DNA of 64,000 nt, taken from Meandrina meandrites. Lineage: Eukaryota > Cnidaria > Anthozoa > Scleractinia > Meandrinidae. This document shows positions 5,849-62,463 of the stretch, piece after piece (the stretch's first letter is position 1; each line of letters begins with the position of its first letter). Position numbers and translations under genes: made by a program. Location: NCBI GenBank assembly GCA_963693305.1, contig OY855912.1:312501-376500 (forward strand), read 5' to 3'. Under the pieces are notes generated by a model, which saw only the letters and a program-made list of their open reading frames with translations, was not told the DNA's origin and did not search any database.

Positions 5849-5897
5849 CGAACAAAGCAAAACAAAAAACTTGCAGGACAGAAAAAAGTCTCCTTGC

Positions 5898-5903
5898 TTT
5901 ATT
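5898..5903 (-). terminator. Polyadenylation signal AATAAA on the minus strand
   Basis: TTTATT on the plus strand reads AATAAA on the minus strand, one base beyond the TAA (5,907-5,905) that ends the leftward gene. The two convergent genes end only 56 bp apart, a spacing typical of compact viral genomes. Confidence 0.5.
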
Positions 5904-5904
5904 T

Positions 5905-26800: not shown

Positions 26801-27788
26801 GTGCACTATACACGGTACACTGTACTCTGTGTGCTGTGCACTATACACGGTACACTGTACGCTGTGCACTGTGCACTATACACGGTACACTGTACTCTCT
26901 GCACTGTGCACTATACACAGTACACTGTACTCTGCACTATACACGGTACACTGTACTCTATGCCCGGTGCACTTTACACGGTACACTGTACTCTGTGCAC
27001 TATACACGGTACTCTGTACTCTGTGCACTGTGCACTGTGCACTATACACGGTACACTGTACTCTGTGTGCTGTGCACTATACACGGTACACTGTATGCTG
27101 TGCACTGTGCACTATACACGGTACACTGTACTCTGTGCACTGTGCACTATACACAGTACACTGTACTCTGCACTATACATGGTACACTGTACTCTATGCC
27201 CTGTGCACTAAACACGGTACACTGTACTCTGTGCACTATACACGGTACACTGTACTCTGTGCACTGTGCACTGTGCACTATACACGGCACACTGTACTCT
27301 GTTCACTATACACGGTACACTGTACTCTGTGCACTGTACACCATACACGGTACACAGTACTCTGTGCACTATACACGGTACACTGTACTCTGTGCGCCGT
27401 GCACTATACACGGTACACTGTACTCTGTGCACTGTGCACTGTGCACTATACACGGTACACTGTACTCTGTGCACTGTGCACTGTGCACTGTGCACTATAC
27501 ACGGTACACTGTACTCTGTGCACTGTGCACTATACACGGTACACTGTACTCTGTGCACTGTGCACTATACACGATACACTGGACTCAGTGCACTGTGCAC
27601 TATGCACGGTACACTGTACTCTGTGCACTGTGCACTATACACGGTACACTCTACTCTGTGCACTATACACGGTACACTGTACTCTGTGCACTATACACGG
27701 TACACTGTACTCTGTGCACTGTGCACTGTGCACTATACACGGTACACTGTACTCTGTGCACTGTGCACTATACACGGTATAGTAGTAT
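14807..27788 (+). repeat. Heptamer-built satellite, main segment
   Basis: Roughly 13 kb of 28/35/42-bp units, nearly all multiples of 7 bp. The plus strand has almost no TAA, TAG or TGA in any frame, so ORFs up to 1,240 codons appear; the minus strand meets a TAG about once per unit. TATA-rich blocks containing several GTATATAC palindromes lie at about 16,554-16,601, 17,749-17,798, 20,078-20,126 and 25,060-25,109, and a split one ends at 27,788. Longer stretches recur almost unchanged (for example about 16,200-17,300 and 17,400-18,480), so higher-order repetition of roughly 1.2 kb is present. No gene is supported. Confidence 0.93.
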
Positions 27789-28032
27789 TTATGCCGAGAG
27801 CGGCGCTTATTTCAATAATAAACCTAGTGCACCAAGGACTAGAATGAAATGCTTATAATCGCGGTCGTGCATGCGGCCAGAAAAACACTGAATCACGTAG
27901 ACACTAGTGTGGATTAATTTGGCCACTCACGTGGCGTTTATTTCAAAACGTTCAAATGCTAAGGTGTCAAATTAATCAATTAAACATCGCTATATTTGAT
28001 TCAGTGAATAAAGTTGGGGCGAAAAACAGCCA
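27789..28032 (-). repeat. Element 1 split direct repeat B2
   Basis: A 244-bp copy of B1 at 28,322-28,565. It differs from B1 by T/C in the CCTAG(T/C)GCACC segment and by T/G in CACG(T/G)AGAC. It begins TTATGCC at the satellite junction. A 58-bp unique spacer (28,033-28,090) separates it from A2. Confidence 0.92.
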
Positions 28033-28090
28033 GCCAAGTAAGAGGTAGCAAGAGCAGAGGAGGAGCTCAGGGGATGGTGGAGGGCCGACG

Positions 28091-28321
28091 AAAGAAACTG
28101 AAAATACCCTTTGAAAGCTAAACAGCTATCACTATCGGCGTTGGCAGAAAAAGGGGCGAGTAATAGCAGAGCTCACGAATTTAAACCTTGCTCTGCGTGT
28201 GGTGACTCGCCCATAATCGTTATGGCTATCTACCTCTGCAGCTTGTACCGTAAGATAAGATAAGATAAGGCCCCGCCCCAGCATAAAACCCATTATCGCC
28301 CTTTAGTCAATAAAGGGCCAT
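28091..28321 (-). repeat. Element 1 split direct repeat A2
   Basis: A 231-bp copy of A1 (34,040-34,270), apparently identical. It contains four GATAAG-like repeats and ends in a perfect inverted repeat, GCCCTTTA paired with TAAAGGGC, one to two bases before the A2/B1 junction. Confidence 0.92.
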
Positions 28322-28565
28322 TTATGCCGAGAGCGGCGCTTATTTCAATAATAAACCTAGCGCACCAAGGACTAGAATGAAATGCTTATAATCGCGGTCG
28401 TGCATGCGGCCAGAAAAACACTGAATCACGGAGACACTAGTGTGGATTAATTTGGCCACTCACGTGGCGTTTATTTCAAAACGTTCAAATGCTAAGGTGT
28501 CAAATTAATCAATTAAACATCGCTATATTTGATTCAGTGAATAAAGTTGGGGCGAAAAACAGCCA
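28322..28565 (-). repeat. Element 1 split direct repeat B1
   Basis: A 244-bp copy of B2, directly abutting A2. The A2/B1 junction (CCAT then TTATGCC) is the sequence expected at the join of a circular intermediate. Confidence 0.92.
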
Positions 28566-28814
28566 CAAGCCACATCCTGTGGCGAGCCCCAACCCAAGCC
28601 GCAGGCACGCACACACGCACGCAAGCACGCACTATGAAATAGTGCACACTGAGTGCAGAAACGACAAACTATAAAGATACATTTGTAATGTAAAGGCATC
28701 AGAAACACCAGGCCAATCTCTGACATGTCCCTAAAGCCCCTACGAATAACAGCTAGATCTCGGGCTCGGCAAGAGCACGCTTTCTAGCGCTCTAGATTAA
28801 CTTCTCTAGCGTAC

Positions 28815-29160
28815 AATTGATGCCCCAGCCCTTGACTGACAGGCAAACTAACTCTGGAGATGAGCCAAAGTTTGGCTCACGCTATGATTAATAATAGTCA
28901 GAACACTAACTCGAAAAGTAAAATAAGATCTACTAGGCTAAAATTGCCGCCCCAGCCCATGCCTGGAAGGCGAGCGTTGATCTTAGCTACAGCTAACAGC
29001 TGAAGTAGTTCGCTGAAGACCAGGAATAATAATATTACTGCCCCAACCCATGCCTGTAAGGCGAACGTTGATCTTAGCTACCGCTAACAGCTGAGTAGTT
29101 TAATGAAGAATAGAATTAATTATATTATTGCCCCAGCCCCTGACTGAAAGGCAGGCTTAA
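28815..29160 (-). repeat. Imperfect ~95-125-bp tandem repeats in element 1 3' region
   Basis: Four degenerate copies of a segment with GCCCCAGCCC, then an ACTG/CCTG core and AAGGC, start near 28,818, 28,944, 29,037 and 29,128. The middle two also share GTTGATCTTAGCTA and GCTAACAGCTGA. They lie directly after the recombinase stop. Confidence 0.7.
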
Positions 29161-30074
29161 GTCTTAAACACCTCTGAAGGTTGACGAATGTATAGTTTAA
29201 ATGCGTCGGATTTCCAACGGCCAAGGTGGCGAATCTGAGCGTCGGATAAGCCTTTGTCAGCCGCCCAAGATGCGGCGCCGATCCGGAAAGAATAAGATTT
29301 GTATTTGGATGAATCAAGACCACAAAAATTTAGTGCGTGCCGAAGTTGTTTTGTAAAATGGCTAGTTTTAACCGGAGAACCATCGGAAAAGCAGAACAAG
29401 GCGCCCGGAATTGTGCCTCGCATAGCACAGTAACGTTGTAAATAATTCACTGGGCAAAACTCTGCCCCCGATGCGCAGTGCAAAACAATTGCAAAGGGGC
29501 GCCTTTCCGAGTTATGTTTGAAGTCGGTGATGACAATTGTCGCGGCGGTCACGCAATTGTCTTTAAATTGGAAATGAAGGTCTTGAATTTTTACTAAAGG
29601 TTTCAAATTCGCACCCTTGGCCGTGAGTTCGCCTACTCGGAAAAAACCATAGAAGGCCACCACAAACATCGTTCGGTACAACAGCCTTTGATATGCTGAT
29701 GAGTTGGTATGATTTAATGCGAGAACTAATCGTTGCAAAACACTACGTGTTATTGGAAGCCTAACATCTGGTGAAGAGTTTAGCTTACTGTGAGCCGCTA
29801 GAATCTTCTGCACTAAAAATTGTTTAGTCGGATCAGGGAAATTAGCCAACTTGTGAACGTAACTTAACGCGGAGACATATGTCGAGATTGTCGAGGATGC
29901 AAACTTCCTCGATGAGAGATAAGATATAAACAACGCTAAATTATTTACTGAGACCGGAAGGAGCGAGGCACCCGACTCGCAAAATTCGGTGGAAAAATCG
30001 ACATATGTTGACCAAGCTCTTTGGTAAGTCTTACGCGAACCCTCTGTAATGGCTGAGTGCAGAAGGTCGTTCAA
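29157..30074 (-). CDS. Element 1 tyrosine recombinase (integrase), about 305 aa
   Basis: A phage-integrase-fold recombinase that would integrate the circular cDNA. The N-terminal SAM-like DNA-binding region (residues 1-100) is followed by a catalytic domain. Box I Arg is R146 in FFRVGEL. Box II is YSFRIG with R264, then LGRW with W287, and the nucleophile is Y295 in LYIR. The usual first His of HxxR is Tyr (Y261) here, whereas element 2 has His. The frame overlaps the RT/RNase H stop by a few bases and lies at -1 relative to it. The first codon of the ORF is TTG and there is no nearby ATG, so expression by frameshift or reinitiation is likely. The ORF is intact. Confidence 0.9.
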   Translation of the reverse strand: MNDLLHSAITEGSRKTYQRAWSTYVDFSTEFCESGASLLPVSVNNLALFISYLSSRKFASSTISTYVSALSYVHKLANFPDPTKQFLVQKILAAHSKLNSSPDVRLPITRSVLQRLVLALNHTNSSAYQRLLYRTMFVVAFYGFFRVGELTAKGANLKPLVKIQDLHFQFKDNCVTAATIVITDFKHNSERRPFAIVLHCASGAEFCPVNYLQRYCAMRGTIPGALFCFSDGSPVKTSHFTKQLRHALNFCGLDSSKYKSYSFRIGAASWAADKGLSDAQIRHLGRWKSDAFKLYIRQPSEVFKT

Positions 30075-31648
30075 GTGATTTGCCAGTTGTTGGGTAGTAA
30101 GCCCGCCGGAACCGGCGTCGGTTGTTCGTCTGCGTAAGGCGCTAGTGCTCTGAATTTCTCTACCTGTAAGCGAGATAAAGCATCGCTCTCGCGGTTAACG
30201 CAACCCGCGATGTGCTTAGCATGAAACAAAATATTGTATTTAAGAGTGCAGAGAACAAAGTGCCTAAGCAAGGCCATAACTGAACGATCTTTAGAAGTTT
30301 GCTTATTGATTATCTCAACAACTGCCTGATTATCCGAAAAGAAAACAATACATTTGTCACGCATAAGCGGTCCCCAAATCTCAATCGCCAGGACAATCGG
30401 AAATAACTCTAAGATAGTAATATTGAAATTTTTCCAAGCGGCCGGCCACTCTCCAAAACACCAATGTTTGCCAAATACTGCGGCGTAACCCAAGGAACCC
30501 GCCGCGTCCGTAAATAAATTGAGGTGTTGGGAAGTGGCCCATCGCGAACCGAGGAAAAAAGATTTGCCATTGTACACGCTCAAAAATTCCCGCCATACGT
30601 TGAGATCGTGTTTACATTCCTTGGTTAATCTAACGTGATGTGTGGGTTTCCGAATACCTTTAGTCAAGTCTATCAAACGGCGAAGAAAAGCACGCCCGGG
30701 AACCACAACACAGCAGGCAAAATTGAGAAGCCCTATTAAAGATTGCAGCTCTTTCAGCGTGACGCTTTTACGAGAGCAGAAATCCGCCAACTGGGCACGG
30801 CATTTGGCAAGCTTGTCCTCCGGAAGACGAGCCTCCATCAATTCCGTATCTAAGGTGATCCCTGCGAATTGCAGGGCATTGGTGGGGCCCATAGTTTTCT
30901 CATCGGCTATAGGAACACCTATACGACGGCACAAGCAAAGAAAATTATCTAGATCTACCTGACATTTCGCCTCGGAAGGCCGAATAAATAAGAAGTCATC
31001 TAAAATATGGATGACCGACGACGCGTGCAATTTATTTTTAGCGATCCACTCTAACGCAGTGCTGAATGTTTCAAATATATTACAGGATGACGAGCATCCC
31101 GTTGGAAGGCATTTGTCAAAGTAGAATTTCCCCTGCCATTCCATCCCGAGCAATGGAAAATCGCGGGTTGCTACGGGAATGATACGAAAAGCGGATTTTA
31201 TGTCTGTCTTAGCCAGAAAACAGCCTCGTCCTATAGCTTTAATGAGCCGAACAGCATCATCGATAGTTGCATATCTTACGGTGGCTAACTCTTTAGGAAT
31301 ACCATCATTAACAGATAAGCCCTCCGGGTAAGACAAATGATGAATTAACCTAAATTCTCCTGGCAACTTTTTGGGGACGATGCCTAGGGGCGATACCCTG
31401 AAAGTTTCAAAGGGAGGCGTATCAAACGGACCTACAATTCTGCCCGCTGTGAGCTCTTTTGACAACTTATCATTCACGCTAGTAGGATTGTCCATGGCGC
31501 TCTTCAGATTTGGGGATCGGATTGCAAGGAGAGAACCAAAATATCGTATTGAGAAACCGTGAATAAAACCGTGTATAAGATAGTCCGAAGTTACGTTGTT
31601 ATAACCCTTAAGGTAAAATGCGAGACGGTCGGGCCTTACCGGCGTTGG
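30071..31648 (-). CDS. Element 1 reverse transcriptase/RNase H
   Basis: Copies element RNA into DNA. The open frame extends back to 32,053 (660 codons), but the first ~135 codons overlap gag in another frame and are probably untranslated shadow. Homology to element 2 starts at PTPV near 31,648. With ORF numbering, RT motif A is AKTDIKSAF (D284), motif B LPTGCSSS (317-323), and motif C HILDDF (D352, D353), with Leu in place of the usual Tyr. RNase H follows: FTDAAG (D516), LELFP (E549), FSDNQA (D574) and ESDALSR (D624). No protease, methyltransferase or integrase of DDE type is present. The frame is +1 relative to gag with no usable ATG at the overlap. The ORF is intact. Confidence 0.93.
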   Translation of the reverse strand, partial: PTPVRPDRLAFYLKGYNNVTSDYLIHGFIHGFSIRYFGSLLAIRSPNLKSAMDNPTSVNDKLSKELTAGRIVGPFDTPPFETFRVSPLGIVPKKLPGEFRLIHHLSYPEGLSVNDGIPKELATVRYATIDDAVRLIKAIGRGCFLAKTDIKSAFRIIPVATRDFPLLGMEWQGKFYFDKCLPTGCSSSCNIFETFSTALEWIAKNKLHASSVIHILDDFLFIRPSEAKCQVDLDNFLCLCRRIGVPIADEKTMGPTNALQFAGITLDTELMEARLPEDKLAKCRAQLADFCSRKSVTLKELQSLIGLLNFACCVVVPGRAFLRRLIDLTKGIRKPTHHVRLTKECKHDLNVWREFLSVYNGKSFFLGSRWATSQHLNLFTDAAGSLGYAAVFGKHWCFGEWPAAWKNFNITILELFPIVLAIEIWGPLMRDKCIVFFSDNQAVVEIINKQTSKDRSVMALLRHFVLCTLKYNILFHAKHIAGCVNRESDALSRLQVEKFRALAPYADEQPTPVPAGLLPNNWQIT

Positions 31649-32720
31649 CCCGCGGCTCAACAACCGATGCTCGTCCCTGACTGTCACTCCCAGAGGGCAT
31701 GCTGGAGGCTGCGTTGCTTGTATTATTGTTCGGTCTGTTCGCGCTGCATTGGCTTGCGGGATGGACTGCCCCGCACTTGAAGCAAGAGTGTTTGAAATTG
31801 CAGCCTCTGCAGAACTGGCCGGAATGAAATCTCCAACACACCCCTTTTGGAAAGGACTGAAAGGGACGCTGGTTGGGCCGCCTTGTACGAAAATCATAGT
31901 TCGAGTTTTGGCGTGAGGTGGTGAGGGAGCTATGCATGGCCTGGTGCCATAATTCCCAAGCCACGTTATCCCATGGGTATTTTTCTGGTTTAGACTGGCG
32001 AAGAAATCGGAACTGCTCGTCATAATAACGCCAGTTACCTGATTTTGCTGCAATGTCCCTGACCACCTCGCAATACTTCATCAGAGAACTTATCGCATTA
32101 GGAACCTTAATTGTATAAACAGCTACAAACACATTAAATGCAGTCACCCATTGGTCGATGGATAAGCTACGCCGTTTTGGCTTAACGTGCTCAAGGCAAA
32201 GACTTGGGTGATCATGGTCATTTGTGACAGATAGCCGATATTTGGACTCGTCCGGTGAGACAGTTAGGAGAGACCCGAAATCAACATATTCGTTTGCCCA
32301 TATCTTTGCCTTGATACGATCCGAAACGCGAGACTCGAGGTCAAAAGTGACACTAGAAAACGTGCCGTCCGGTTTCTCGGACTCAAAGGTTAGCCTACCC
32401 GCAGCTACGCTTTTCGTCAGATCTGCAATCTCTTTTGAAGCGGCATCTTCCACCACGCTGGGCTGCGACGTGGACTGATTACTTGGTCGCTGTTCGCCAA
32501 CTGCGGGTGAGACGTTGAGAGTGCCGATGCCGGCCGACTGTAAGGCCCCAGAAATCGCGCTTGATATCAATTCACTCAGTGCGGTGGGGCTGAACTGTGG
32601 TGTGGACGTCGTGCTGTTAGGCAGGGACGCAAACTCACCCTCTGATCGGCGCTGTTTCGCCGATTTCGCTGTTGTGGAGCTTTTTGCCGCCTGGCGCTTA
32701 GAGGCTCGTTTAGGAGGCAT
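31608..32720 (-). CDS. Element 1 gag-like nucleocapsid protein, 370 aa
   Basis: Starts at a true ATG (32,720-32,718) with a Lys/Arg-rich N-terminus that could serve as nuclear localisation signal. Residues 130-260 form a conserved block shared with element 2, including SDRIKAKIWANEYVDFGSLL and WRYYDE. A Cys/His cluster follows at residues 295-325 (CWRF, CRGC, HSCFKCG, HP, C), the zinc-binding arrangement usual in DIRS/Ngaro gag-like proteins. It presumably packages element RNA. Its 3' end overlaps the RT frame by about 40 bp of conserved coding sequence. Confidence 0.88.
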   Translation of the reverse strand: MPPKRASKRQAAKSSTTAKSAKQRRSEGEFASLPNSTTSTPQFSPTALSELISSAISGALQSAGIGTLNVSPAVGEQRPSNQSTSQPSVVEDAASKEIADLTKSVAAGRLTFESEKPDGTFSSVTFDLESRVSDRIKAKIWANEYVDFGSLLTVSPDESKYRLSVTNDHDHPSLCLEHVKPKRRSLSIDQWVTAFNVFVAVYTIKVPNAISSLMKYCEVVRDIAAKSGNWRYYDEQFRFLRQSKPEKYPWDNVAWELWHQAMHSSLTTSRQNSNYDFRTRRPNQRPFQSFPKGVCWRFHSGQFCRGCNFKHSCFKCGAVHPASQCSANRPNNNTSNAASSMPSGSDSQGRASVVEPRANAGKARPSRILP

Positions 32721-32881
32721 GCTTATGAAAAATTGAAATTGTATTACCCAAACGTATATCAGATTAAAACGCTGTGAAGCTCAAAATTAGTGGGTGTACT
32801 CCCTTTTTCCTAGCAGGCTGGAAACACTTCAGCCAATGAGCCAAGGGCAATTAATAATTATGAAATCAACTGGCACAAACA

Positions 32882-33228
32882 AATCCGAGACATTCAGTAA
32901 AGGCTTACGTAACAGCCAACGAATGTCAAGTACACGTACAGAGCAGGCAACATGACAAAAACCAACCATCCGAGACATTTCAAAAAGGACAGTTGTCCTA
33001 TAATGGCCTGGGTGTGTTGGGCACACTAATGCAGTTAAACAATAGCCGCCAGGTGATAACACACTAATTACGCCATAAATGTCAAGTGCAATACTGCAAA
33101 AACAATCCGAGACATTTCAAAAGGACTATTGTCCCATAATGGCCTAAGTGTGTTGGGCACACTACTGCAGTATAACAATAGCCGCCAGGTGATAACACAC
33201 TAATTACGCCATAAATGTCAAGTGCAAG
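32882..33228 (-). repeat. 137-bp tandem repeats between SGNH and gag ORFs of element 1
   Basis: Two close copies start at 32,968 and 33,105 (both ATCCGAGACATTTC), sharing GCCGCCAGGTGATAACACAC and ATAAATGTCAAGTGCAA. A degenerate third copy begins near 32,882. They occupy the non-coding gap between the first two ORFs. Confidence 0.8.
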
Positions 33229-33343
33229 TAATTACAAATTCCAATATAGCCTGCGAAATTTGTATATATGATGCATGTTGTAAATATTTTGCGATACCGC
33301 CGTTAAAAGATCAAAATGGCTACGTGGCCTTTGGCAATTGCAT

Positions 33344-33925
33344 TTAAACGGCGGACACACCCACTAACTTTACAGACTTCAAAATAGCCCCTCGAATACT
33401 ACGCATAAATTTATAGTAGCCTAAATTGTTTAGATGGACCCCATCAGATAAATAAAGGTCTCGTTTGCAGTTCCAGAAACCTCTGTGACGCCAGTAATAA
33501 CAAAAGGGCAACTGCTCGAGCACTACCTTAAGATATCGGTGGAGTTTGCCCACCTTGCAATTGTACTCCTCCGAGTCCGGCGTACGTCGCCGCAATACCT
33601 GCCCTACTACGATAAATTCGACGGAACATACACTGTGAAGATCGCGAACTAATTTTTCTAGCTCTGAACCAACAGTTTCAGGCGCGACCTTGACGAGATC
33701 ATTGGAGCCAAGCTCCAAAATAATGATCTTGGGGGCGATTTGGCGAACGACTTGAAAGTCAAACTTACGGAATTTCTCAATTGTGCGGCCCCCCACGCCA
33801 TGAAAATGAATATCCGCAATATCGCTAAGACTGTTAAACGCATGCATGTGCCGCTTCTTCTGCACAAACGCCTCAAGTCGGTGAACGAATGAGTGCCCAA
33901 TTATTAACACGCGATGTTTAGCCAT
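33344..33925 (-). CDS. Element 1 SGNH-family hydrolase, 193 aa
   Basis: A complete SGNH/GDSL-type esterase-like domain. Block I is LIIGHSF (nucleophile S12), block II GVGGRT (G45), block III ELGSND (N75), block V DGVHLN (D161, H164), so the whole catalytic set is present. It starts at a true ATG and is the first ORF of the element, 115 bp downstream of A1. SGNH-type ORFs have been reported in some Ngaro-group elements; their role in retrotransposition is unknown. Substrate cannot be inferred. No signal peptide is seen, so the protein is probably cytosolic. Confidence 0.88.
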   Translation of the reverse strand: MAKHRVLIIGHSFVHRLEAFVQKKRHMHAFNSLSDIADIHFHGVGGRTIEKFRKFDFQVVRQIAPKIIILELGSNDLVKVAPETVGSELEKLVRDLHSVCSVEFIVVGQVLRRRTPDSEEYNCKVGKLHRYLKVVLEQLPFCYYWRHRGFWNCKRDLYLSDGVHLNNLGYYKFMRSIRGAILKSVKLVGVSAV

Positions 33926-34039
33926 AGATGTAGAAATTGAGAGGGCACTAACGGCAACTTGAAACGAAGCTGAACAATAGCCAAAATGGAAAAGGAAAAA
34001 ATAATATGAATAAAGGTAAGCACTTGCCTGATACCGACC

Positions 34040-34270
34040 AAAGAAACTGAAAATACCCTTTGAAAGCTAAACAGCTATCACTATCGGCGTTGGCAGAAAA
34101 AGGGGCGAGTAATAGCAGAGCTCACGAATTTAAACCTTGCTCTGCGTGTGGTGACTCGCCCATAATCGTTATGGCTATCTACCTCTGCAGCTTGTACCGT
34201 AAGATAAGATAAGATAAGGCCCCGCCCCAGCATAAAACCCATTATCGCCCTTTAGTCAATAAAGGGCCAT
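34040..34270 (-). repeat. Element 1 split direct repeat A1 (5' end)
   Basis: The 231-bp 5' terminal repeat of element 1. On the minus strand it contains a TTATC-rich run, a GGGGCGGGG box and the terminal inverted repeat GCCCTTTA/TAAAGGGC. It presumably includes the element promoter. It ends CCAT against satellite ATACGG. Confidence 0.9.
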
Positions 34271-40200: not shown

Positions 40201-42612
40201 CTGTGCACTATACACGGTACACTGTACTCTGTGCACTATACACGATACACTGTACTCTTTGCACTATACACGGAACACTGTACTCTGTGCACTATACACG
40301 GTACACTGTACTCTCTGCACTGTGCAGTATGCACGGTACACTGTACTCTGTGCACTGTGCACTATACACGGTACACTCTACTCTGTGCACTATACACGGT
40401 ACACTGTACTCTGTGCACTATACACGGTACACTGTACTCTGTGCACTATACACGGTACACTGTACTCTGTGCACTGTGCACCATACACGGTACACTGTAC
40501 TCTGTGCACAATACACGGTACACTGTACTCTCTGCACTGTGCACTATACACGGTACACTGTACTCTGTGCACTGTACACCATACAAGGTACACAGTACTC
40601 TGTGCACTATACATGGTACACTGTACTCTATGCCCTGTGCACTAAACACGGTACACTGTACTCTGTGCTCTGTGCACTATACACGGTACACTGTACCCTG
40701 TGCACTGTGTACTATACACGGTACACTGTACTCTGTGCACTGTGCACTATACACGGTACACTGTACTCTGTGCACTATACACGGCACACTGTACTCGGTT
40801 CACTATACACGGTACACTGTACTCTGTGCACTGTACACCATACACGGTACACAGTACTCTGTGCACTATACACGGTACACTGTACTCTGTGCACTGTGCA
40901 CTATACACGGTACACTGTACCCTGTGCACTGTGTACTATACACGGTACACTGTACTCTGTGCACTGTGCACTATACACGGTACACTGTACTCTGTTCACT
41001 ATACACGGTACACTGTACTCTCTGCTGTGTACACCATACACGGTACACAGTACTCTGTGCACTATACACGGTACACTGTACTCTGTGCGCTGCGCACTAT
41101 AGACGGTACACTGTACTCTGTGCACTGTGCACTGTGCACTATACACGGTACAGTGTACTCTGTGCACTGTGCACTATACACGGTACACTGTACTCTGTGC
41201 ACTGTGCACTGTTTTCTAATACACGGTACACTGTACTCTGTGCACTATACACAGTACACTGTACTCTGTGCACTGTGCACTATAAACGGTACACTGTACT
41301 CTGTCCACTATACACGGTACACTGTACTCTGTGCACTGTTTACTATACACGGTACACTGTACTCTGTTCACTATACATGGTACACTGTGCACTGTGCACT
41401 ATACACGGTACACTGTACTCTCTGCACTGTCCACTATACACAGTACCCTGTACTCTGTGCACTATCCACGGTACCCTGTACTCTGTGCCCTGTGCACTAT
41501 ACGTGGTAAACTGTACTCTGTGCAATGTGCACTATACACGGTACACTGTACTCTGTGCATCGTGCACTATACACGGTACACTGTACTCTGTGCACTGTGC
41601 ACTATACACGGTGCACTGTACTCTGTGCACTTTGCACTATACACGGTACACTGTACTCTGTGTGCTGTGCACTATACACGGTACACTGTACGCTGTGCAC
41701 TGTGCACTATACACGGTACACTGTTCTCTGTGCACTGTGCACTATACACAGTACACTGTACTCTGCACTTTACACGGTACACTGTACTCTATGCCCTGTG
41801 CACTAAACACGGTACACTGTACTCTGTGCACTGTGCACTATACACGGTACACTGTACTCTGTGCACTGTGCACTATACACGGTACACTGTACTCTGTGCA
41901 TTATACACGGTACACTGTACTATGTTCACTATACACGGTACACTGTACTCTGTGCACTGTACTCTGTGCACTGTACACTATACACGGTACACTGTACTCT
42001 TTGCACTATACACGGTACACTGTACTCTGTGCACTGTGCACTATACACGGTACACTGTACTCTGTGTGCTGTGCACTATACACGGTACACTGTACGCTGT
42101 GCACTGTGCACTATACACGGTACACTGTACTCTGTGCACTGTGCACTATACACAGTACACTGTACTCTGCACTATACACGGTACACTGTACTCTATGCCC
42201 TGTGCACTAAACACTAAACACGGTACACTGTACTCTGTGCACTGTGCACTATACACGGTACACTGTACCCTGTGCACTGTGTACTATACATGGTACACTG
42301 TACTCTGTGCACTGTGAACTATACACGGTACACTGTACTCTGTGCACTATACACGGCACATTGTACTCTGTTCACTATACACGGTACACTGTAATCTGTG
42401 CACTGTACACCATACACGGTACACAGTAGTCTGTGCACTATACACGGTACACTGTACTCTGTGCGCTGTGCACTATACACGGTACACTGTACTCTGTGCA
42501 CTGTGCACTGTGCACTATACACGGTACACTGTACTCTGTGCACTGTGCACTGTGCACTATACACGGTACACTGTACTCTGTTCACTGTGCACTATACACG
42601 GTATAGTAGTAT
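34271..42612 (+). repeat. Heptamer-built satellite between elements 1 and 2
   Basis: Same satellite and orientation as 14,807-27,788. TATA-rich blocks: the split one continuing at 34,271-34,307, intact ones at about 35,113-35,161, 39,788-39,869 and 40,011-40,081, and a second split one ending at 42,612. The 39,788 and 40,011 blocks are longer, with five to six GTATATAC copies. Long ORFs are spurious. No gene seen. Confidence 0.93.
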
Positions 42613-42831
42613 TTATGCTTCAATTCACCCACAAAATGTCAAACCTTAATCAGAAAGAAAAATTGTGCTGTGCTCTGTTCGTAAAGGCAATACAAACAAT
42701 ATAATGGTGAAAAATGGCTATGTGAAAATTGACACATAGCCGGTTTATTAAACTCTAAATAGCCAATATAAATACAAATTCAAACTTTCATTAAACATGT
42801 ATTGCCAACGAAGGTGAGGGCAAACAACCGC
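42613..42831 (-). repeat. Element 2 split direct repeat B2
   Basis: A 219-bp copy of B1 (43,101-43,319) with two single-base differences (A/T in CAGAA(A/T)GAAA, G/C in GAGG(G/C)CAAAC). It starts TTATGCT at the satellite. A 56-bp spacer (42,832-42,887) separates it from A2. Confidence 0.92.
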
Positions 42832-42887
42832 TAGAAAAATTAAATACCATATAACAAGAATGAGGCAGGAATGGGGAGGAGGAGGGT

Positions 42888-43100
42888 TGAAGAAAAAATT
42901 TTGTGTGTCAACGAGATCAAGAACGCGACATCCATTATACGAGGATCCAAAAATACGACATTAGCTGCAGACGCCATGTTGAATTCAAAATTTAAATCTG
43001 CACCCTCGATTCCATGTTCCTAACCTCTCTACATAACTCAGAAAATACAATAGTGGCTACATTGTCGCATAAAATTTTTATTTGCAGGCAAATAATGTAT
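42888..43100 (-). repeat. Element 2 split direct repeat A2
   Basis: A 213-bp copy of A1 (48,706-48,918) with two differences near TTATAC(G/A)AG(G/A-T) at about 42,940. It ends with the inverted repeat TATTTGC/GCAAATA six to seven bases before the A2/B1 junction. Confidence 0.92.
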
Positions 43101-43319
43101 TTATGCTTCAATTCACCCACAAAATGTCAAACCTTAATCAGAATGAAAAATTGTGCTGTGCTCTGTTCGTAAAGGCAATACAAACAATATAATGGTGAAA
43201 AATGGCTATGTGAAAATTGACACATAGCCGGTTTATTAAACTCTAAATAGCCAATATAAATACAAATTCAAACTTTCATTAAACATGTATTGCCAACGAA
43301 GGTGAGGCCAAACAACCGC
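43101..43319 (-). repeat. Element 2 split direct repeat B1
   Basis: A 219-bp repeat joined directly to A2, giving the circle-junction sequence GTAT then TTATGCT. The following 180 bp up to the recombinase stop is unique non-coding DNA. Confidence 0.92.
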
Positions 43320-43499
43320 CAAAGCGCTTGCAAAGCAAGGGCACGCCCCACCCCAGCGCAATTTTCATTCTGGCTAAGAAATATGTCAAAATTTCAACCA
43401 GTAGATTATTCACACAAGGTTCAAGAAATCAAATACTGGGTTCCTGAAGTTGTGCTGCCCCTGCAAGCATCAACATCACATCACCCATGACACATAGAA

Positions 43500-44432
43500 T
43501 TAAGAAACAGATTCTAGAGAAGTTATCCTGATGTACTTTTTGAAAGCATCAGATTTCCATCTACCCAATTGCCTAATCTTGGTGTCAGAAAGGCCTTGTT
43601 CAGCTGCATAAGTAGCGGCACCAATCCTAAAGCTGTGTCCCTTATATCTATTGTGGTCCAAATTGCATAGCTGAATAATTGAACCAAGAATCTTACTGAA
43701 CTCGCTTCTCAAAAAAGGGGACCCATCTCGATTGATAAAAAGTGGGCCATGTAATGTGCCACGAACAGAAGCATAATCCAAGAATGATTCAACAGGACAC
43801 GCTTTAGGTTGTCTAGTTAAAACTATTGAAAAAGGAATTTGATTGTAATTATGTTTATAGTTTTTGAATGTAATTATCAAGGACACTACATTGCCCTTCC
43901 CACAGCATTGCTTAGAAACTTGATTCAGTTGTAAAAGGTTACTATTGATACTTTCTCGCTTTGACACTGTGATTTCACCAATACGAAGAAATGCAAAAAA
44001 TGCCATAGAACACATTGCTTTGAACATATATGATTGGTACTGAGAAACACAAACACTATCAGAAGCTCTCATGATGCAAACTAAAATGGGAAGGGTAATG
44101 GGTAATCGTGAGTCCAATTTGTGACTAATCTTACCATAACCTTTAAGCATCTCACTAATGTAAAATGTTTTAGTAGGGTCAAGAAGACCCGCTAAACGAT
44201 GGAAATACCCAAGGGCAGAAACATAAGTATTTACTGTGGAAGAAGCATACCCACGATTAAATAAATACGCAATAAATAATGCCAATGTGGCTGGCATCAC
44301 TGGTAAAGAAACGTGTGAGTTATGAAAAACACTTATTTGAAATTCCTGATAAAGTTTCCATGCTCTACGGTATGTTGGTACTGAAGACTTCTGTAAGCTA
44401 GCAGACAGAAGATCATGAGCTATAGATGCCAA
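43500..44432 (-). CDS. Element 2 tyrosine recombinase, about 310 aa
   Basis: Homologue of the element 1 recombinase with a full catalytic set: R150 (FLRIGEI), H266 and R269 (HSFRIG), W292 (LGRW) and nucleophile Y300 (KKYIR). The N-terminal part has the expected helical DNA-binding region with YRRAWKLY and STVNTYVSALGY. The ORF is intact. It overlaps the end of the RT/RNase H frame by 13 bp, is at -1 relative to it, and starts at TTG with no ATG for dozens of codons. It would join element circles to the target. Confidence 0.92.
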   Translation of the reverse strand: MASIAHDLLSASLQKSSVPTYRRAWKLYQEFQISVFHNSHVSLPVMPATLALFIAYLFNRGYASSTVNTYVSALGYFHRLAGLLDPTKTFYISEMLKGYGKISHKLDSRLPITLPILVCIMRASDSVCVSQYQSYMFKAMCSMAFFAFLRIGEITVSKRESINSNLLQLNQVSKQCCGKGNVVSLIITFKNYKHNYNQIPFSIVLTRQPKACPVESFLDYASVRGTLHGPLFINRDGSPFLRSEFSKILGSIIQLCNLDHNRYKGHSFRIGAATYAAEQGLSDTKIRQLGRWKSDAFKKYIRITSLESVS

Positions 44433-46018
44433 TTTGCAGGGAGAAGATGTGATGGGATTACTGTTGGCATAGGATCCATGTAAGCTGGTGCTAGTTGCTT
44501 GAAACGTTGGATCTGCAAACGAGATAGTGCATCCGCAAGAGTGTTCTTAAAACCCGAAATATGCTTGGCTTTAAACAAAACATTGTGCTTCAAACAAACT
44601 AGCACAAGTTTACGAACAAAAATCATTAAAGAGGTATCCCTACAGGTTGTCTTATTAATTACATGTACTAATGCTTCATTATCAGTAAAGAATGTAATAC
44701 ACCTGTCCCTAATATGGTCGCCCCACAAAAATAAACTCAGAATAATTGGGTAAAATTCCAGGATAGCAATATTTTTACCCAGCCATTCTTTAGGCCATTC
44801 ACCATAGCACCAGTGAGTACCAAATACAGCTCCAAAACCGTGCGCCCCTGCTGCATCGGTAAATAACTGTAGGGTCACACTATTTTCCCATCTATCATTA
44901 AGAAAAACTGATTTGCCATTATATTCTTGAAAAAACGATTGCCATGTTAACAAATCAGCCTTAACCTCCTTGGAAACACGAACAAAATGACCTGGCCTTT
45001 TGAGGCCAATGGTCAAGTCAATAAGTCGTCTTAAGAAGGAACGCCCTGGAACAACAACTGAACATGCAAAATTTAGTACTCCAGTAAGAGACTGCAACTC
45101 TCTTAATGTTGCTTTCTTCTTTTTCATAAATTCGGTGATCAATCGTTTACATTTCAATAACTTATCTTCAGGTAGGCGTGATTCACAACGGATAGTGTCT
45201 AGTTCAACGCCTGCAAATGTCAAAATTGTAGAAGGGCCAAATGTTTTTTCAGGTGCCATGGGAATGCCTAAAAAATCACATAATTCTAAGAAAAGTTGAA
45301 GACTTCTTGAGCACTGACTTTTTGTTGGTTGAATGAGTAGAAAATCATCTAGCAGGTGAATAAGTTTAGCTATTCCAAGCTTATCTTGTGCAATCCACTC
45401 AATTGCTGTACTGAAACTTTCAAAGGTTTTACATGAGCTGGAACACCCCATAGGCATGCATTTATCATAAAAATATTGGTCATTCCATTTTATGCCTAAA
45501 AGATGATAATCTTGGGGATTGATGGGTAGAATCCTGAAAGCACTCTTGATATCTGTTTTAGCCAAATAAGAACCAACACCTGCTTGTTTTATCATTCTAA
45601 TAGCTTGGTCAATATTAGCATACTGAACACTGGAATTTTCACGGGAAATTCCATCATTTACCGATTTCCCCATTGGATATGACAGGTGATGGATCATACG
45701 AAATTCCCCTGGGGCTTTCTTTGGAACGATACCCAGTGGTGATACTCTGAAAACAGGAAAAGGTGGTGCATCAAAAGGTCCAGCCAACCTATGGGTTTCC
45801 AGCTCCTTTTTGAATTTTTGTTCAACTATTTTGGGCTGTTGTCTAGCAGATAACAAATTAGGAGATTCATACGATCTACTTTGACCAACAGAAAAAATAT
45901 GAAATCCATACTTAAATCCATTAACTAAGAACATACGATTTTGAAAATCATACCCTTCAAGCAAAAATTCAAGTCGCTTTACCTTTACTGGTGTTGGGAG
46001 CGGTAAGGTTGGCAGCAA
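44420..46018 (-). CDS. Element 2 reverse transcriptase/RNase H, about 532 aa
   Basis: Intact RT with motif A AKTDIKSAF (D156), motif B MPMGCSSS (188-194) and motif C HLLDDF (D224, D225). RNase H residues are D388 (FTDAAG), E421 (ILEFYP), D446 (FTDNEA) and D496 (LADALSR). The first codon of the open frame is TTG and overlaps the end of gag by about 50 bp, in the +1 frame relative to gag, just as in element 1. The conserved start of homology is PTPVKVKRLEF. Family membership is certain; exact start is not. Confidence 0.92.
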   Translation of the reverse strand: MLPTLPLPTPVKVKRLEFLLEGYDFQNRMFLVNGFKYGFHIFSVGQSRSYESPNLLSARQQPKIVEQKFKKELETHRLAGPFDAPPFPVFRVSPLGIVPKKAPGEFRMIHHLSYPMGKSVNDGISRENSSVQYANIDQAIRMIKQAGVGSYLAKTDIKSAFRILPINPQDYHLLGIKWNDQYFYDKCMPMGCSSSCKTFESFSTAIEWIAQDKLGIAKLIHLLDDFLLIQPTKSQCSRSLQLFLELCDFLGIPMAPEKTFGPSTILTFAGVELDTIRCESRLPEDKLLKCKRLITEFMKKKKATLRELQSLTGVLNFACSVVVPGRSFLRRLIDLTIGLKRPGHFVRVSKEVKADLLTWQSFFQEYNGKSVFLNDRWENSVTLQLFTDAAGAHGFGAVFGTHWCYGEWPKEWLGKNIAILEFYPIILSLFLWGDHIRDRCITFFTDNEALVHVINKTTCRDTSLMIFVRKLVLVCLKHNVLFKAKHISGFKNTLADALSRLQIQRFKQLAPAYMDPMPTVIPSHLLPANWHL

Positions 46019-47123
46019 CAGGTTTTCCAGTGGAGTTACGAAAATTATGGCAATTTATCATTTGATGATTCTTTTGACAAAGTGGACAATAGTGTTTAAA
46101 ATTGCATCCAACACATTTTAAGCCTTTATGATACTTCCAGCAGTAACCTTTGGGAACTCGAAGACCTGCTTTCAATTCACCCTCAAACTTCTTTGTCTGC
46201 GAAAAACTATTTCTGGGTGGCTGTGATCTGATCCACAACTCCCAATGTACAGAACCCCAAGGATAAGCTTTGGGGTCTTTTTGCCGGAGATAGCGAAAAT
46301 TCTCATCATAGTAACGCCAGTTGTATCCCCTTGCTGCCAAATCCCTAATAATCTCACTATATTTCATCAATAATGGAGCTTCAACATGATATTTCTGTGT
46401 GTAGACACCCACAAAGATCTGGTAAGCCGTGACCCACATTTCAATTGAAATAATTTGCTTTGCCTTTTGCTTGGGCTCCAATGTGATGAGTGGGTGTTCT
46501 GTTGGCGATTTTGTATCATTTGAAAGGCAAAGATGAAAACTCTCATGTTCTTTCTTGTTATTCAAGAGCAATCCAAGATCAACATATTCATGGGCCCATA
46601 TTTTTCTTTTTAGTCTATCGGAAACTGACATGTCAATTGGGATGTCTGATGGCACAAAAATATCTTTTGGCTTAGAAATTAGACTATTGCTTCCTGACAA
46701 GCTATCCAATACAGCCGCAATTGACCCCTGTACAATTGTTGCTGATGAGCTAGCCTGATCCGAAGTATTCACAATTTCTAGATTATTTTCATTCACATGC
46801 AAACCACTTAACGATCTGATTCCTGGTTCAGCAACAACTGACCCCTGTACAGCTGAGGCTGTTCCAGACAACCAATGGTTTTCATTACCTGCAGTAGCAC
46901 TGTCAATTGACTTTGTTTTTAACTTTTCTAATACAGCATTAGTCACCCTCTCGATCATCTGTTCAATACCAGCATTTGAAGGACTTGTTTGGCCTTGGAC
47001 ATGATGTTCCTGTACATGATCTTCGCCTTGTTCCACTCGTCTACGGCGACTTGCCGGTTGTTGTTCCGACTCTTGCAAAAGAGTAGTTTTCCTCTTTACT
47101 CTAGCAGATACCCGGCGAGACAT
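45969..47123 (-). CDS. Element 2 gag-like nucleocapsid protein, 384 aa
   Basis: Starts at ATG 47,123-47,121. The basic N-terminus (residues 1-30) is followed by a low-complexity linker, a conserved block (165-300) matching element 1 (SDRLKRKIWAHEYVDLG, NWRYYDE) and a Cys/His cluster at 328-358 (C328, C337, C340, H344, C346, C349, H353, C358). It presumably binds and packages the element RNA. Uninterrupted. Confidence 0.88.
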   Translation of the reverse strand: MSRRVSARVKRKTTLLQESEQQPASRRRRVEQGEDHVQEHHVQGQTSPSNAGIEQMIERVTNAVLEKLKTKSIDSATAGNENHWLSGTASAVQGSVVAEPGIRSLSGLHVNENNLEIVNTSDQASSSATIVQGSIAAVLDSLSGSNSLISKPKDIFVPSDIPIDMSVSDRLKRKIWAHEYVDLGLLLNNKKEHESFHLCLSNDTKSPTEHPLITLEPKQKAKQIISIEMWVTAYQIFVGVYTQKYHVEAPLLMKYSEIIRDLAARGYNWRYYDENFRYLRQKDPKAYPWGSVHWELWIRSQPPRNSFSQTKKFEGELKAGLRVPKGYCWKYHKGLKCVGCNFKHYCPLCQKNHQMINCHNFRNSTGKPVAANLTAPNTSKGKAT

Positions 47124-47710
47124 GCTGGAATATAAAATAACTCAACACCAGTATAAGGTAGAAAAAGCTCATGTACAGTAAGCCATTCTTTTGCTGGTTA
47201 AGTTGTTATGTCCAAATGATGTAACAAATGAAAATTGGAAAAATTCAGCAAATTCCAAATCCAACAATAAAATTTAAAAATGATAATTTTGAATTACAGA
47301 ACAATTCCCAACAATAATGGGGGAATCATAAAGTTTTGTTATCAATAATAATATTATTTTGCAGTGTTAGTCATATGACAAAGATCTCAACAATGTTATT
47401 AAGCTCATAAACTACGGGATATATGGCACTCCAAATTACCCATGTATCCAAAAAATGTAACATGTACATTCTTATATGACAATATAAAACCTTCCAACAA
47501 CCGCTGGTTGGAAAAAATTCAGAAATAACCAACCCATCAATTGGTAAGTAATCTGACTTTGTACAGATTTGAACAAACTCAAAATAATAGTAAAAGAGTT
47601 AACAAGACATCACAACATGAACAGTAACATGAACAATGGCAGGGATGGCTTGGCAGACTACACATGTCGCCGAAACATTTAAAATGCCTGTCCCTACAAC
47701 GCCACAAAAA

Positions 47711-47920
47711 CATTCCAACAACCTCTTGTTGGACAAAAGCATTTAGACCAAATATATCAAGTGGTCACAAATCCATGCATAGCATGGGATAAACATAAAC
47801 AAAACAAGAACATTCCAACAACCTCTGGTTGGACAAAAGCAAAGAGACCAAACTTATAAATTGGTCACAAATCCATGCACAGCATGACGCAAAAACATAA
47901 AAAGTATCGACAAAACAAGA
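47711..47920 (-). repeat. 100-bp tandem repeats upstream of element 2 gag
   Basis: Two copies of a ~100-bp unit start with CATTCCAACAACCTC at 47,711 and 47,811. A related fragment with CCAACAACCGCTGGTTGG lies near 47,494. CCAACAACCTCTGGTTGG can form a short hairpin. As in element 1, tandem repeats occupy the gap between SGNH and gag, but the sequences are unrelated. The rest of 47,124-48,167 is AT-rich with no gene visible. Confidence 0.75.
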
Positions 47921-48167
47921 CATATCACATACGCATAAATAATTTAAAATTATGAAATCTGATGTCAAACAGCTTGTAGCAACATGTAGTAATAATCATA
48001 CGTTTATTTGCATCGAATTGACCTGAAGCTTACATTCCATATGAGTTTTAAGCTGAGAATAGATTTTAAATTTCTTTACAAAGTAATTTGTAATATGATC
48101 TTATCATAATATACAGTTTAAAAAAGCAGAAGACTGTCAACAGGGCATAATGCCATGAAAAGTACAT

Positions 48168-48725
48168 TCACTCTAACTTATTCAAAATCTTTACAGCCTT
48201 CAAAATTGCTCCTCGGTAACTTCTATAAAGTGCATACTGGCCATAAGGATTTAAGTGTACTCCATCTTCCAAGAGAAAATCGTGTTTTGGTGAATCCAAA
48301 ATCTTATGTCGCCAGATAAAAACTTTCGGGTCATCGAGGACGACACTTAAATAGTGATTTAAGACTTCAATCCTCTGATTGAACATTGTGTCCGATCGCC
48401 GAATAACCTGACAAACTCCGACAACCCTTACAGAAAAGTGGTTCAACAACAACTGGACTAATTCGTCAATTTGAAAACCAACCGTTTCAGGTGATTCACA
48501 ACACAGGTCATTTGTACCTATCTCCAAAATCACAGCATCTGGTGCGAAACGAGATACATTTGCAAGGTCAAATCTTTTAACCTTATTAACCGTCCTTCCC
48601 CCAACACCAAACAAACGGACGTTGACATCTTTTAGTTCGAAGTTGCTTTTAGCACGATCGTCAAAACGCTGTTCCAAGTCGCCGTTTAGGCATCGTACAG
48701 AAGAATGAAGAAAAAATTTTGTGTG
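48168..48725 (-). pseudogene. Element 2 SGNH-family hydrolase, N-terminus lost at the A1 repeat
   Basis: The domain keeps block II GVGGRT, block III EIGTND and block V DGVHLN, so the Gly, Asn, Asp and His positions are intact. The homologous frame extends upstream of the first TTG (48,677) as far as 48,706, where the A1 repeat begins. There the block I segment reads LHSS where element 1 reads GHSF, and the frame meets a TGA at 48,728-48,726. No ATG lies between that stop and block II. The start codon and the beta strand before the nucleophile are missing, as if A1 had replaced the 5' end of the gene. It could be a 5'-truncated pseudogene, or be expressed from a non-AUG start. Confidence 0.75.
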
Positions 48726-48918
48726 TCAACGAGATCAAGAACGCGACATCCATTATACAAGATTCCAAAAATACGACATTAGCTGCAGACGCCATGTTGA
48801 ATTCAAAATTTAAATCTGCACCCTCGATTCCATGTTCCTAACCTCTCTACATAACTCAGAAAATACAATAGTGGCTACATTGTCGCATAAAATTTTTATT
48901 TGCAGGCAAATAATGTAT
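48706..48918 (-). repeat. Element 2 split direct repeat A1 (5' end)
   Basis: A 213-bp 5' terminal repeat. It carries the TATTTGC/GCAAATA inverted repeat near its outer end and finishes GTAT against satellite ATACGG. Unlike element 1, there is no gap between A1 and the SGNH coding region. Confidence 0.9.
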
Positions 48919-49107
48919 ATACGGTATATACAAGGTATATACACTGTACTCTGTGCGCTGTGCACTATACACGGTACACTGTACTCTGTGCACTGTGCAC
49001 TGTGCACCATACACGGTACACTGTACTCTCTGCACTGTGCACTATACACGGTACACTGTACTCTCTGCACTACACACGGTACACTGTACTCTGTGCACTA
49101 CACAGCT
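48919..49107 (+). repeat. Heptamer-built satellite, right edge
   Basis: The last 189 bp of the array: remainder of the TATA block with the private CAAGG spacer, then about five units ending at CAGCTG (49,103-49,108). Reverse-complemented, it matches 10,433-10,598 nearly base for base, including GTGCACCATACACGG, with one extra unit. Confidence 0.9.
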
Positions 49108-61466: not shown

Positions 61467-61912
61467 AGTTTGGGAGAACTCGAAAAAGCTGTGGAAACAC
61501 AGCATTTCTCTCTTCCACTAGTGTTTCTATTAAACAATTAGATTATGAGCTCGAAATTTCTATCACGCATAGAAATCGAGAGCGAATAACCTACTTGTTC
61601 TAGTATAAATCTTTTCTGGAACAGCCTCGACCAGTAAACTGTCTAAATCTTCTTCACGGACACTTCGAAAACATAAAGAAGCGGCCGCCATTTTGTTAGC
61701 AAGAGCATACTGCAACGCTGCTCAATATCTATCACAGAATAGATAGTGGGTAGCGTCAGAGCGCGGAATTTGTGATAGAACGCTAGGAGATTTATACTAA
61801 AACTCGATAGAAACACGGTACGTGTTTTCTATTTCTTAAATTGCTTAACCGTTATCAGAGTTAGGAAAAGGACACGTATGTTCAAAATTTTTTTTCCTAA
61901 TCTTCTTCACAG

Positions 61913-62148
61913 AGCAAGAGCGCTATGAAAAAGCGAAGTTTGAAGATGGCATGCTTCTCGTGGACGATCGATGGCTTCAAAATTAGGGCTTCACAGATTT
62001 TGCAAAGCAAAGATAAGAAGCCCATGACAAGCGGAGATTTCGAATTTGACGGGATGCGATGGAGGATGGTTCTGTTCATCGAATCGATAAAATGCAACCT
62101 TTACCTCCAACTAAAGACAGCTGTGAATCCAGTGAGGGCTGCAATCAG
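61913..62148 (+). CDS. MATH-domain exon, first half
   Basis: The exon follows a strong polypyrimidine tract and CACAG acceptor and ends at CAATCAG, then GTAAAC. It opens in phase 0 with a Lys-rich segment. It then encodes the start of a MATH/TRAF-C beta sandwich: FSWTIDGFK, a central SGDFEFDGMRWRMVLFI and YLQLKTA. These match the MATH pattern of an F-x-W-x-I strand, then Ser-x-x-Phe, then G-x-x-W-x-hydrophobic. It ends in phase 2, matching the next exon. Confidence 0.7.
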
Positions 62149-62463
62149 GTAAACATTTAACATAAATCCCAGCATAAAACACAGGTGTGCAATGTCAGTA
62201 ACTCTATTTTTTAGGGAAAGAAAAATGAAAAAAAATAATAAAAAGTGCTCGATCAAATGTTTGGAATAGAGAATACAGAAAAGAGTTCCTTTGACGTTTA
62301 TTGGACGGACTGTCAATTGAATTAACGAGCCAGTGACGCTATTTCATTCTTTTTTTTTTTTCTCGTGCGACCAAAGTTTGGTTGAAATTTAAGGAAAATC
62401 ATAAATAATACTCCTTTGGCAGAGAAAAACCAAGAAGTTCAAAGAAACAAAAATGAAAAATGA

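What the first reader, a model, noticed from the sequence alone, without database searches (positions are those of the whole stretch)
27785..48922. Two diverged tyrosine-recombinase retrotransposons inserted at the identical satellite position and orientation
Elements 1 and 2 have unrelated terminal repeats and diverged proteins, yet each splits the same context: TATAGTA, then GTAT^ATAC, then CGG. The cut is at the dyad centre of the 8-bp palindrome GTATATAC. Both are in minus orientation and both begin TTATGC and end in AT. Later GTATATAC copies in the same block (flanked by ACG) are not hit. Two independent insertions at one position in about 21 kb of satellite are unlikely by chance. Either the lineage integrates site-specifically into this satellite, or the second insertion used the first as a landing guide. 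A satellite-homing Ngaro-type element would be a new behaviour for this group as far as I know.
Basis: partly seen in the sequence, partly recalled or inferred. Interest (0 to 1): 0.88.

Follow-up and report, generated by a model that had tools for sequence, protein, structure and literature searches.

The report
Satellite-homing retrotransposons sharing one docking site
Two distantly related jumping genes sit at exactly the same spot of the same 17-letter word in two different copies of a repeated (satellite) DNA unit, and they most likely arrived separately, each apparently using its own recombinase enzyme to pick that word as a docking site.

Summary
Two Ngaro-type tyrosine-recombinase (YR) retrotransposons, EL1 (27789-34270) and EL2 (42613-48918), both minus strand, split the satellite word TATAGTAGTAT^ATACGG at the same base. 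The word occurs 11 times in the window: 2 filled, 9 empty. EL2's joined flanks match a mirrored empty copy at 10586 exactly for 30 bases left and 90 right of the cut; nothing is lost or duplicated beyond a 2-bp (EL1) or 4-bp (EL2) overlap. The filled sites lie on different branches of the satellite's repeats, and a tree joining them is rejected. The elements belong to separate lineages (RT 56%, YR 40% identical). So these are two independent insertions, not one duplicated insertion with a swapped interior. A chance second hit on the word is about 4e-4. Whether the address is the whole 17-mer or only its GTATATAC core is unsettled (11 of 46 cores). The genome-wide test could not be run: the search machine did not complete. 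YR elements in simple repeats have precedents (TATE, CryptonV, nimaviruses); I saw none for Ngaro. New variant of a known kind, resting on two insertions.

The parts
27789..34270 (-). EL1, complete Ngaro-type YR retrotransposon (ends ambiguous by 2 bp, AT)
   Evidence: split direct repeats, ORFs, exact empty-site context
34034..34270 (-). EL1 5' split direct repeat (A1)
   Evidence: 237 bp, 1 mismatch to 28085-28321
33347..34066 (-). EL1 SGNH/GDSL hydrolase open frame, 5'-most
   Evidence: Pfam Lipase_GDSL_2 E 1.6e-8, above cut-off
31611..32780 (-). EL1 gag-like open frame
   Evidence: position and Cys-rich tail; 36% identical to EL2 counterpart; no Pfam match
30074..32077 (-). EL1 RT/RH open frame
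   Evidence: RVT_1 E 8.1e-9, above cut-off; RNase H match below cut-off
29160..30194 (-). EL1 tyrosine recombinase open frame
   Evidence: Phage_integrase E 8.8e-4, below cut-off; predicted fold matches Cre, Foldseek E 9.9e-11
28320..28565 (-). EL1 3' repeat B1
   Evidence: 246 bp, 2 mismatches to 27787-28032
28085..28321 (-). EL1 3' repeat A2
27787..28032 (-). EL1 3' repeat B2 (terminal; first two bases shared with the target)
42613..48918 (-). EL2, complete Ngaro-type YR retrotransposon (ends ambiguous by 4 bp, GTAT)
48706..48918 (-). EL2 5' split direct repeat (A1)
   Evidence: 213 bp, 3 mismatches to 42888-43100
48171..48725 (-). EL2 SGNH/GDSL hydrolase open frame, running into the 5' repeat, no ATG before the conserved block
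   Evidence: Lipase_GDSL_2 E 2.7e-12, above cut-off; frame
45972..47141 (-). EL2 gag-like open frame
   Evidence: no Pfam match
44423..46054 (-). EL2 RT/RH open frame
   Evidence: RVT_1 E 2.7e-10, above cut-off; RH not matched
43503..44546 (-). EL2 tyrosine recombinase open frame
   Evidence: Phage_integrase E 3.2e-6, just above cut-off
43097..43319 (-). EL2 3' repeat B1
   Evidence: 223 bp, 2 mismatches to 42609-42831
42888..43100 (-). EL2 3' repeat A2
42609..42831 (-). EL2 3' repeat B2 (terminal; first four bases shared with the target)
27778..27788 (+). filled target, left half TATAGTAGTAT at EL1 (right half ATACGG at 34271)
42602..42612 (+). filled target, left half TATAGTAGTAT at EL2 (right half ATACGG at 48919)
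10586..10596 (-). empty target, mirrored paralogue closest to EL2's site over 1400 bp upstream
14235..14245 (-). empty target
16555..16565 (+). empty target
17751..17761 (+). empty target, closest to EL1's site over 1400 bp upstream
20079..20089 (+). empty target, same branch as EL2's site
25062..25072 (+). empty target, closest to EL1's site over 500 bp upstream
35115..35125 (+). empty target
39790..39800 (+). empty target
40013..40023 (+). empty target
10435..14803 (-). 35-bp satellite (five 7-mers), inverted arm
   Evidence: inverted copy of the right boundary
14804..49107 (+). 35-bp satellite, main arm, interrupted by EL1 and EL2 (right end within a few bases)
   Evidence: sequence

Best explanation
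EL1 and EL2 are two Ngaro-type tyrosine-recombinase retrotransposons from separate lineages that occupy the same base, in the same orientation, of two different copies of the 17-bp satellite word TATAGTAGTAT^ATACGG, and they most likely got there by two independent site-specific integrations of circular DNA catalysed by their own tyrosine recombinases. Shown: anatomy, identical junctions, nine empty copies of the word, no gain or loss of target bases beyond the 2-4 bp overlap, and flank histories that differ. Inferred: the reverse transcript is circularised so that its two ends meet; the recombinase pairs that junction with the GTATATAC palindrome in the target, exchanges strands within the shared AT (GTAT in EL2), and reads asymmetric flanking bases to set the orientation. 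The satellite offers many copies of the word where insertion would cost the host little. The two lineages would have either kept or separately evolved this preference.
For: Structure A1-[SGNH, gag, RT/RH, YR]-B1-A2-B2 in both. Predicted EL1 YR fold like Cre. Junctions identical. Word 2 filled, 9 empty of 11. EL2 joined flanks vs mirrored empty site: 98.1% over ungapped columns (2195 columns, 133 with gaps), exact for 30 bases left and 90 right of the cut. A flank tree of all 11 sites puts EL2 with 10586 (100/98) and EL1 with 25062 (86/91); holding EL1 and EL2 together costs 103.6 log units. RT tree of 38 rows: EL1 and EL2 in separate groups, each 100/100. Chance of a second hit on the same word 4.2e-4.
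Against: Only two insertions; copies elsewhere in the genome were not seen. The finer address beyond GTATATAC is not significant (11/46). The word is among the most easily melted stretches of the array (1.2% of positions weaker; 347 positions as weak or weaker, of which 11 are the word, 3.2%), so local DNA softness could be part of the cue. EL1's own end junction does not resemble the target better than the array at large: within 5 bases either side, 781 of 51,730 positions match better and 2,236 equally, so simple likeness of element end and target does not explain EL1. EL1's YR has Tyr where 20 of 21 aligned sequences have His, so this copy may no longer be active. The nearest empty relative depends on the stretch compared: at 1400 bp upstream EL1 is closest to 17751, at 500 bp EL2 is closest to 20079; over 180 bp downstream EL1 is closest to 20079 (98.9%) and EL2 to 39790 (96.3%), EL1 and EL2 are 92.9% alike, and EL2 and 10586 only 88.6% (a 35-bp gap counts against them).
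Confidence: 0.75

Rival explanations
1. The recombinases need only the GTATATAC core (or a short AT-rich palindrome), and both elements landed in the TATAGTA copies of it by luck; the satellite is simply rich in this core. This is a narrower form of the best explanation, so the two confidences overlap.
For: 46 cores in the array, 11 in the word; both falling in the word has p 0.057, the second alone 0.24.
Against: Both are in the word and in one orientation, although the core itself is symmetric.
Confidence: 0.3
2. No sequence recognition: insertion favours easily melted or exposed DNA in this satellite, and the word is one of the softest stretches.
For: Word at -16.99 kcal/mol per 16 bp; only 1.2% of positions are weaker; all 35 other GTATATAC are more stable.
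Against: Among 347 positions as weak or weaker only 11 are the word (3.2%), and both insertions share the exact base and orientation.
Confidence: 0.1
3. One old insertion was duplicated with the satellite and its interior later replaced by a different element.
For: The satellite does amplify in blocks, with an inverted copy of the right boundary.
Against: Filled sites are on different branches, each with an empty nearest relative; the one-clade tree is 103.6 log units worse; terminal repeats differ between the elements and agree within each.
Confidence: 0.03
4. The second element used the first, or an earlier resident since precisely excised, as landing site, as DIRS-1 is reported to insert into its own copies.
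For: YR reactions can be reversed (general knowledge); DIRS-1 precedent (PMC5633606, passages).
Against: blastn of both elements against the window finds no match outside the elements themselves, so no trace of a resident at the nine empty words, and no EL1-like DNA at EL2 or EL2-like DNA at EL1.
Confidence: 0.05

Closest known systems
Ngaro-like YR retrotransposons (Xenopus DIRS-53_XT; Cafeteria Ngaros)
   Same: A1-[ORFs]-B1-A2-B2 repeats, gag, RT/RH, YR, SGNH hydrolase in some (PMC9210276, PMC8547959, passages)
   Different: SGNH frame lies 5' of gag here but after YR in amphibian elements (PMC9210276, passage). Two Cafeteria types prefer virophage DNA, and no fixed base or word was reported in the passages I read.
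TATE (VIPER-like, Leishmania braziliensis)
   Same: YR retrotransposon at the same relative position in a tandem repeat, telomeric hexamers cut between GGG and TTA (PMC6681497, passage)
   Different: Different YR-retrotransposon group, telomere instead of this satellite, one element type; here two lineages share one word.
CryptonV
   Same: YR element, some families specific to microsatellites (PMC8869645, passage citing a Repbase report titled as from cnidarians)
   Different: DNA transposon, so without the RT found here; split repeats are not described for it in what I read.
Endogenous nimaviruses with YR
   Same: YR-associated insertion into telomere repeats or 28S rDNA (PMC10871703, passages)
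   Different: Large DNA viruses; their telomere-associated YRs are reported there as not close to DIRS.
DIRS-1 (Dictyostelium)
   Same: YR retrotransposon clustered in one repeat environment, circular intermediate (PMC5633606, passages)
   Different: Inserts into its own copies without apparent sequence preference; inverted repeats.

Membership tests
Ngaro-like | split direct repeats A1-[ORFs]-B1-A2-B2 | tested here: met
   both elements
Ngaro-like | tyrosine recombinase in place of DDE integrase | tested here: met
   Pfam (EL2 just above cut-off, EL1 below) and Cre-like predicted fold for EL1
Ngaro-like | reverse transcriptase | tested here: met
   RVT_1 above cut-off in both
Ngaro-like | RNase H | tested here: inconclusive
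   RT_RNaseH E 0.065 in EL1, below cut-off, none in EL2 at E 0.1
Ngaro-like | no adenine methyltransferase domain (present in DIRS) | tested here: met
   none matched at E 0.1 in the eight frames scanned
Ngaro-like | SGNH hydrolase ORF (some members) | tested here: met
   both, but 5' of gag; the EL2 frame lacks an ATG before the conserved block
Ngaro-like | groups with named Ngaro RTs in a tree | not tested
   the tree held no element named Ngaro by its source; EL2 groups with cnidarian proteins whose sources call them uncharacterized or hypothetical
VIPER-like (TATE) | phylogenetic grouping with VIPER/TATE | not tested
   no such sequences were
DIRS-like | inverted terminal repeats with internal complementary region | tested here: not met
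   0 inverted pairs of 30 nt or more (14-base seed) in either element
Crypton | YR without reverse transcriptase | tested here: not met
   RT present
Site-specific element | most copies at the same target | not testable with these tools
   two of two seen here; the own-genome search did not complete (and 22 repeats)

The most novel reading that the evidence does not exclude
A satellite DNA carries a built-in docking word, amplified with its higher-order repeats, and at least two long-separated Ngaro lineages home to that exact word and orientation with their tyrosine recombinases: the YR counterpart of R2 in rDNA, but in a satellite, with the address shared across lineages.
Probability: 0.35. 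Interest if true: 0.75.

Novelty: new variant of a known kind. Interest (0 to 1): 0.56.

Why it matters
If it holds genome-wide, Ngaro retroelements join the site-specific retroelements, and a YR retroelement would come with a native target word, its many empty copies and two diverged recombinases to compare. That makes target choice by YR retrotransposons directly testable, and it would show a satellite acting as a low-cost reservoir for mobile elements. The native recombinase-word pair could also be of use as an integration tool.

Tried and rejected

Relatives in public contigs: of 37 genome contigs stretches that matched a peptide pattern, 2 encode a relative, both short contigs of a MAG named as a tubeworm symbiont, and no split repeats were found in them. 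The protein scan of viral contigs gave none of 33. The exact 30-base satellite pattern is absent from viral contigs, a 791-base satellite stretch has no near match in plasmids, and the EL2 RT gene none in phages.

Idea that the target is chosen because it resembles the element's joined ends: fits EL2 (within 5 bases each side, 1 of 51,730 positions better and 55 equal, the 11 words among these) but not EL1 (781 better, 2,236 equal). Rejected as a common rule.

Idea that the finer context explains why other GTATATAC copies are not hit: not significant.

Rfam: no family at gathering threshold in the window.

Left end of the window (1-7300): no Pfam match at E 0.1 in the eight frames tried, one frame without a match in phages; not pursued.
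Full report
What is there. Two elements of 6.5 and 6.3 kb interrupt a satellite built from 35-bp units (five 7-mers). Both lie on the minus strand and have split direct repeats in the order A1-[ORFs]-B1-A2-B2. The open frames, in coding order, are an SGNH/GDSL hydrolase, a gag-like protein, RT/RH and a tyrosine recombinase. RVT_1 and GDSL pass Pfam's cut-offs in both; the integrase family passes in EL2 and not in EL1; RNase H passes in neither. EL1's recombinase was modelled (mean pLDDT 75, pTM 0.57), and its best structural matches are Cre (Foldseek E 9.9e-11, TM 0.47 by query length, rmsd 13: domains probably right, domain arrangement loose). Repeat pairs differ at 3 of 483 positions in EL1 and 5 of 436 in EL2; if the pairs were nearly alike at insertion, as the published model implies (PMC6681497, passage), both insertions are young.

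The target. The word TATAGTAGTAT occurs 11 times; at two places an element follows it, at nine the sequence runs on as ATACGG. The junctions are GTAT|TTATGC on the left and AT|ATACGG on the right for both. Nothing is duplicated or lost beyond an overlap of AT (EL1) or GTAT (EL2). EL2's joined flanks align with a mirrored empty copy at 10586 with 98.1% identity over ungapped columns of a 2195-column alignment (133 columns with gaps), exact for 30 bases left and 90 bases right of the cut. For EL1 the joined flanks give 95.1% ungapped to the empty copy at 25062 (225 of 2430 columns with gaps) and 96.0% to that at 17751 (256 of 2450).

Independent insertions. I compared the flanks of all 11 sites. 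Over 500 bp upstream EL1 is nearest to empty 25062 (97.4%) and EL2 to empty 20079 (93.1%) and 10586 (91.6%); over 1400 bp EL2 is nearest to 10586 (93.2%) and EL1 to 17751 (89.1%). EL1 and EL2 upstream flanks are only 82-85% alike. The short stretch downstream is less telling: over 180 bp EL1 is nearest to 20079 (98.9%), EL2 to 39790 (96.3%), EL1 and EL2 are 92.9% alike, and EL2 and 10586 88.6% with a 35-bp gap counted. In a tree of all 11 sites (500 bp up, 180 bp down) EL2 groups with 10586 (100/98), then 20079 (100/99), and EL1 with 25062 (86/91); forcing EL1 and EL2 together costs 103.6 log-likelihood units (the printed p is far too small to be taken literally, and gene conversion between repeats is a caveat). 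The elements themselves are 56% (RT), 40% (YR), 36% (gag) and 43% (SGNH) identical over the aligned parts. In an RT tree of 38 rows (EL1, EL2, 29 unnamed and 5 named proteins that I picked from the best 120 listed in each, and 2 loci), EL2 sits in a 19-row group (100/100) with proteins of Oculina, Nematostella and Dendronephthya, while EL1 sits in another 7-row group (100/100) outside it.

How specific. The array without elements is 25,885 bp. Given the first insertion, the chance that the second lands on the same word is 11/25,885 = 4.2e-4, half that with orientation. Both on any GTATATAC core: 3.2e-6. But given that cores are used, the second on the word rather than another core has chance 11/46 = 0.24. 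So targeting of the core or something containing it is well supported, and the longer address is only suggested.

How it likely works. From the established picture of these elements, as summarised in papers I read in passages (PMC5633606 for circular DIRS-1 intermediates; PMC6681497 for repeat-guided reverse transcription), the YR would integrate a circular DNA whose junction joins the two ends. In both elements that junction, as kept in the internal repeat boundary, reads ...AT|TTATGC.... Exchange within the AT shared with GTAT|ATAC gives exactly the observed junctions with no target-site duplication. Likeness between junction and target is high for EL2 and not for EL1, so I infer protein recognition of the target rather than mere pairing. 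Orientation must come from bases outside the symmetric core. Circles, binding and recombination are inferred, not shown.

Setting. Among the few listed relatives that bear a species name most are cnidarian (Oculina, Nematostella, Dendronephthya, Porites), with Glandiceps, a hemichordate by recall, and a weak MATH-domain match lies at 61901-62149; an animal, perhaps an anthozoan, is my guess.

Literature. Ten searches over the open-licence PMC library; most listings were capped. In those listings and in the passages of ten papers I saw no report of a Ngaro element with a fixed target word. Most subscription papers are not held, and I did not look up the founding Ngaro papers. Precedents, all read as passages only: TATE at one position in telomeric hexamers (PMC6681497), CryptonV in microsatellites (PMC8869645), nimaviruses (PMC10871703), DIRS-1 into its own copies (PMC5633606), and Cafeteria Ngaros of which two types prefer virophage DNA (PMC8547959). 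PMC3783388, PMC9210276, PMC12477816, PMC6387122 and PMC3212892 were also read as passages.

Verdict. A real, precise double insertion and good evidence for targeted integration, but only two events; the genome-wide count that would settle it could not be made.

Noticed in passing
window 7680-14803: Inverted copy of the right array boundary (152-bp satellite next to 35-bp satellite), 87% over 7397 columns to the 38-52 kb side without EL2; it provides the mirrored empty site.
   Followed up: partly
window 1-7300: GC mostly 58-66% with long overlapping frames (one of 800 aa at 2192-4591), unlike the rest of the window; no Pfam match in the eight frames tried, unidentified.
   Followed up: partly
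window 29160-30194: EL1 recombinase has Tyr at residue 301, where 20 of 21 aligned sequences have His, in the HxxR motif (catalytic by recall); possibly a disabled copy.
   Followed up: no
window 48171-48725: EL2 hydrolase frame runs into the 5' repeat and has no ATG before the conserved block; truncated or spliced.
   Followed up: no
window 33347-34066 and 48171-48725: Hydrolase frame is 5'-most in both elements, whereas amphibian Ngaros carry it after the recombinase (PMC9210276, passage).
   Followed up: no
window 28949-29152, 32964-33227, 47704-47886: Short internal tandem duplications (91, 136 and 100 bp) outside the four main frames of the elements.
   Followed up: no
window 61901-62149: Weak MATH-domain match (E 0.0063, below cut-off), perhaps an exon of an animal gene.
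   Followed up: no
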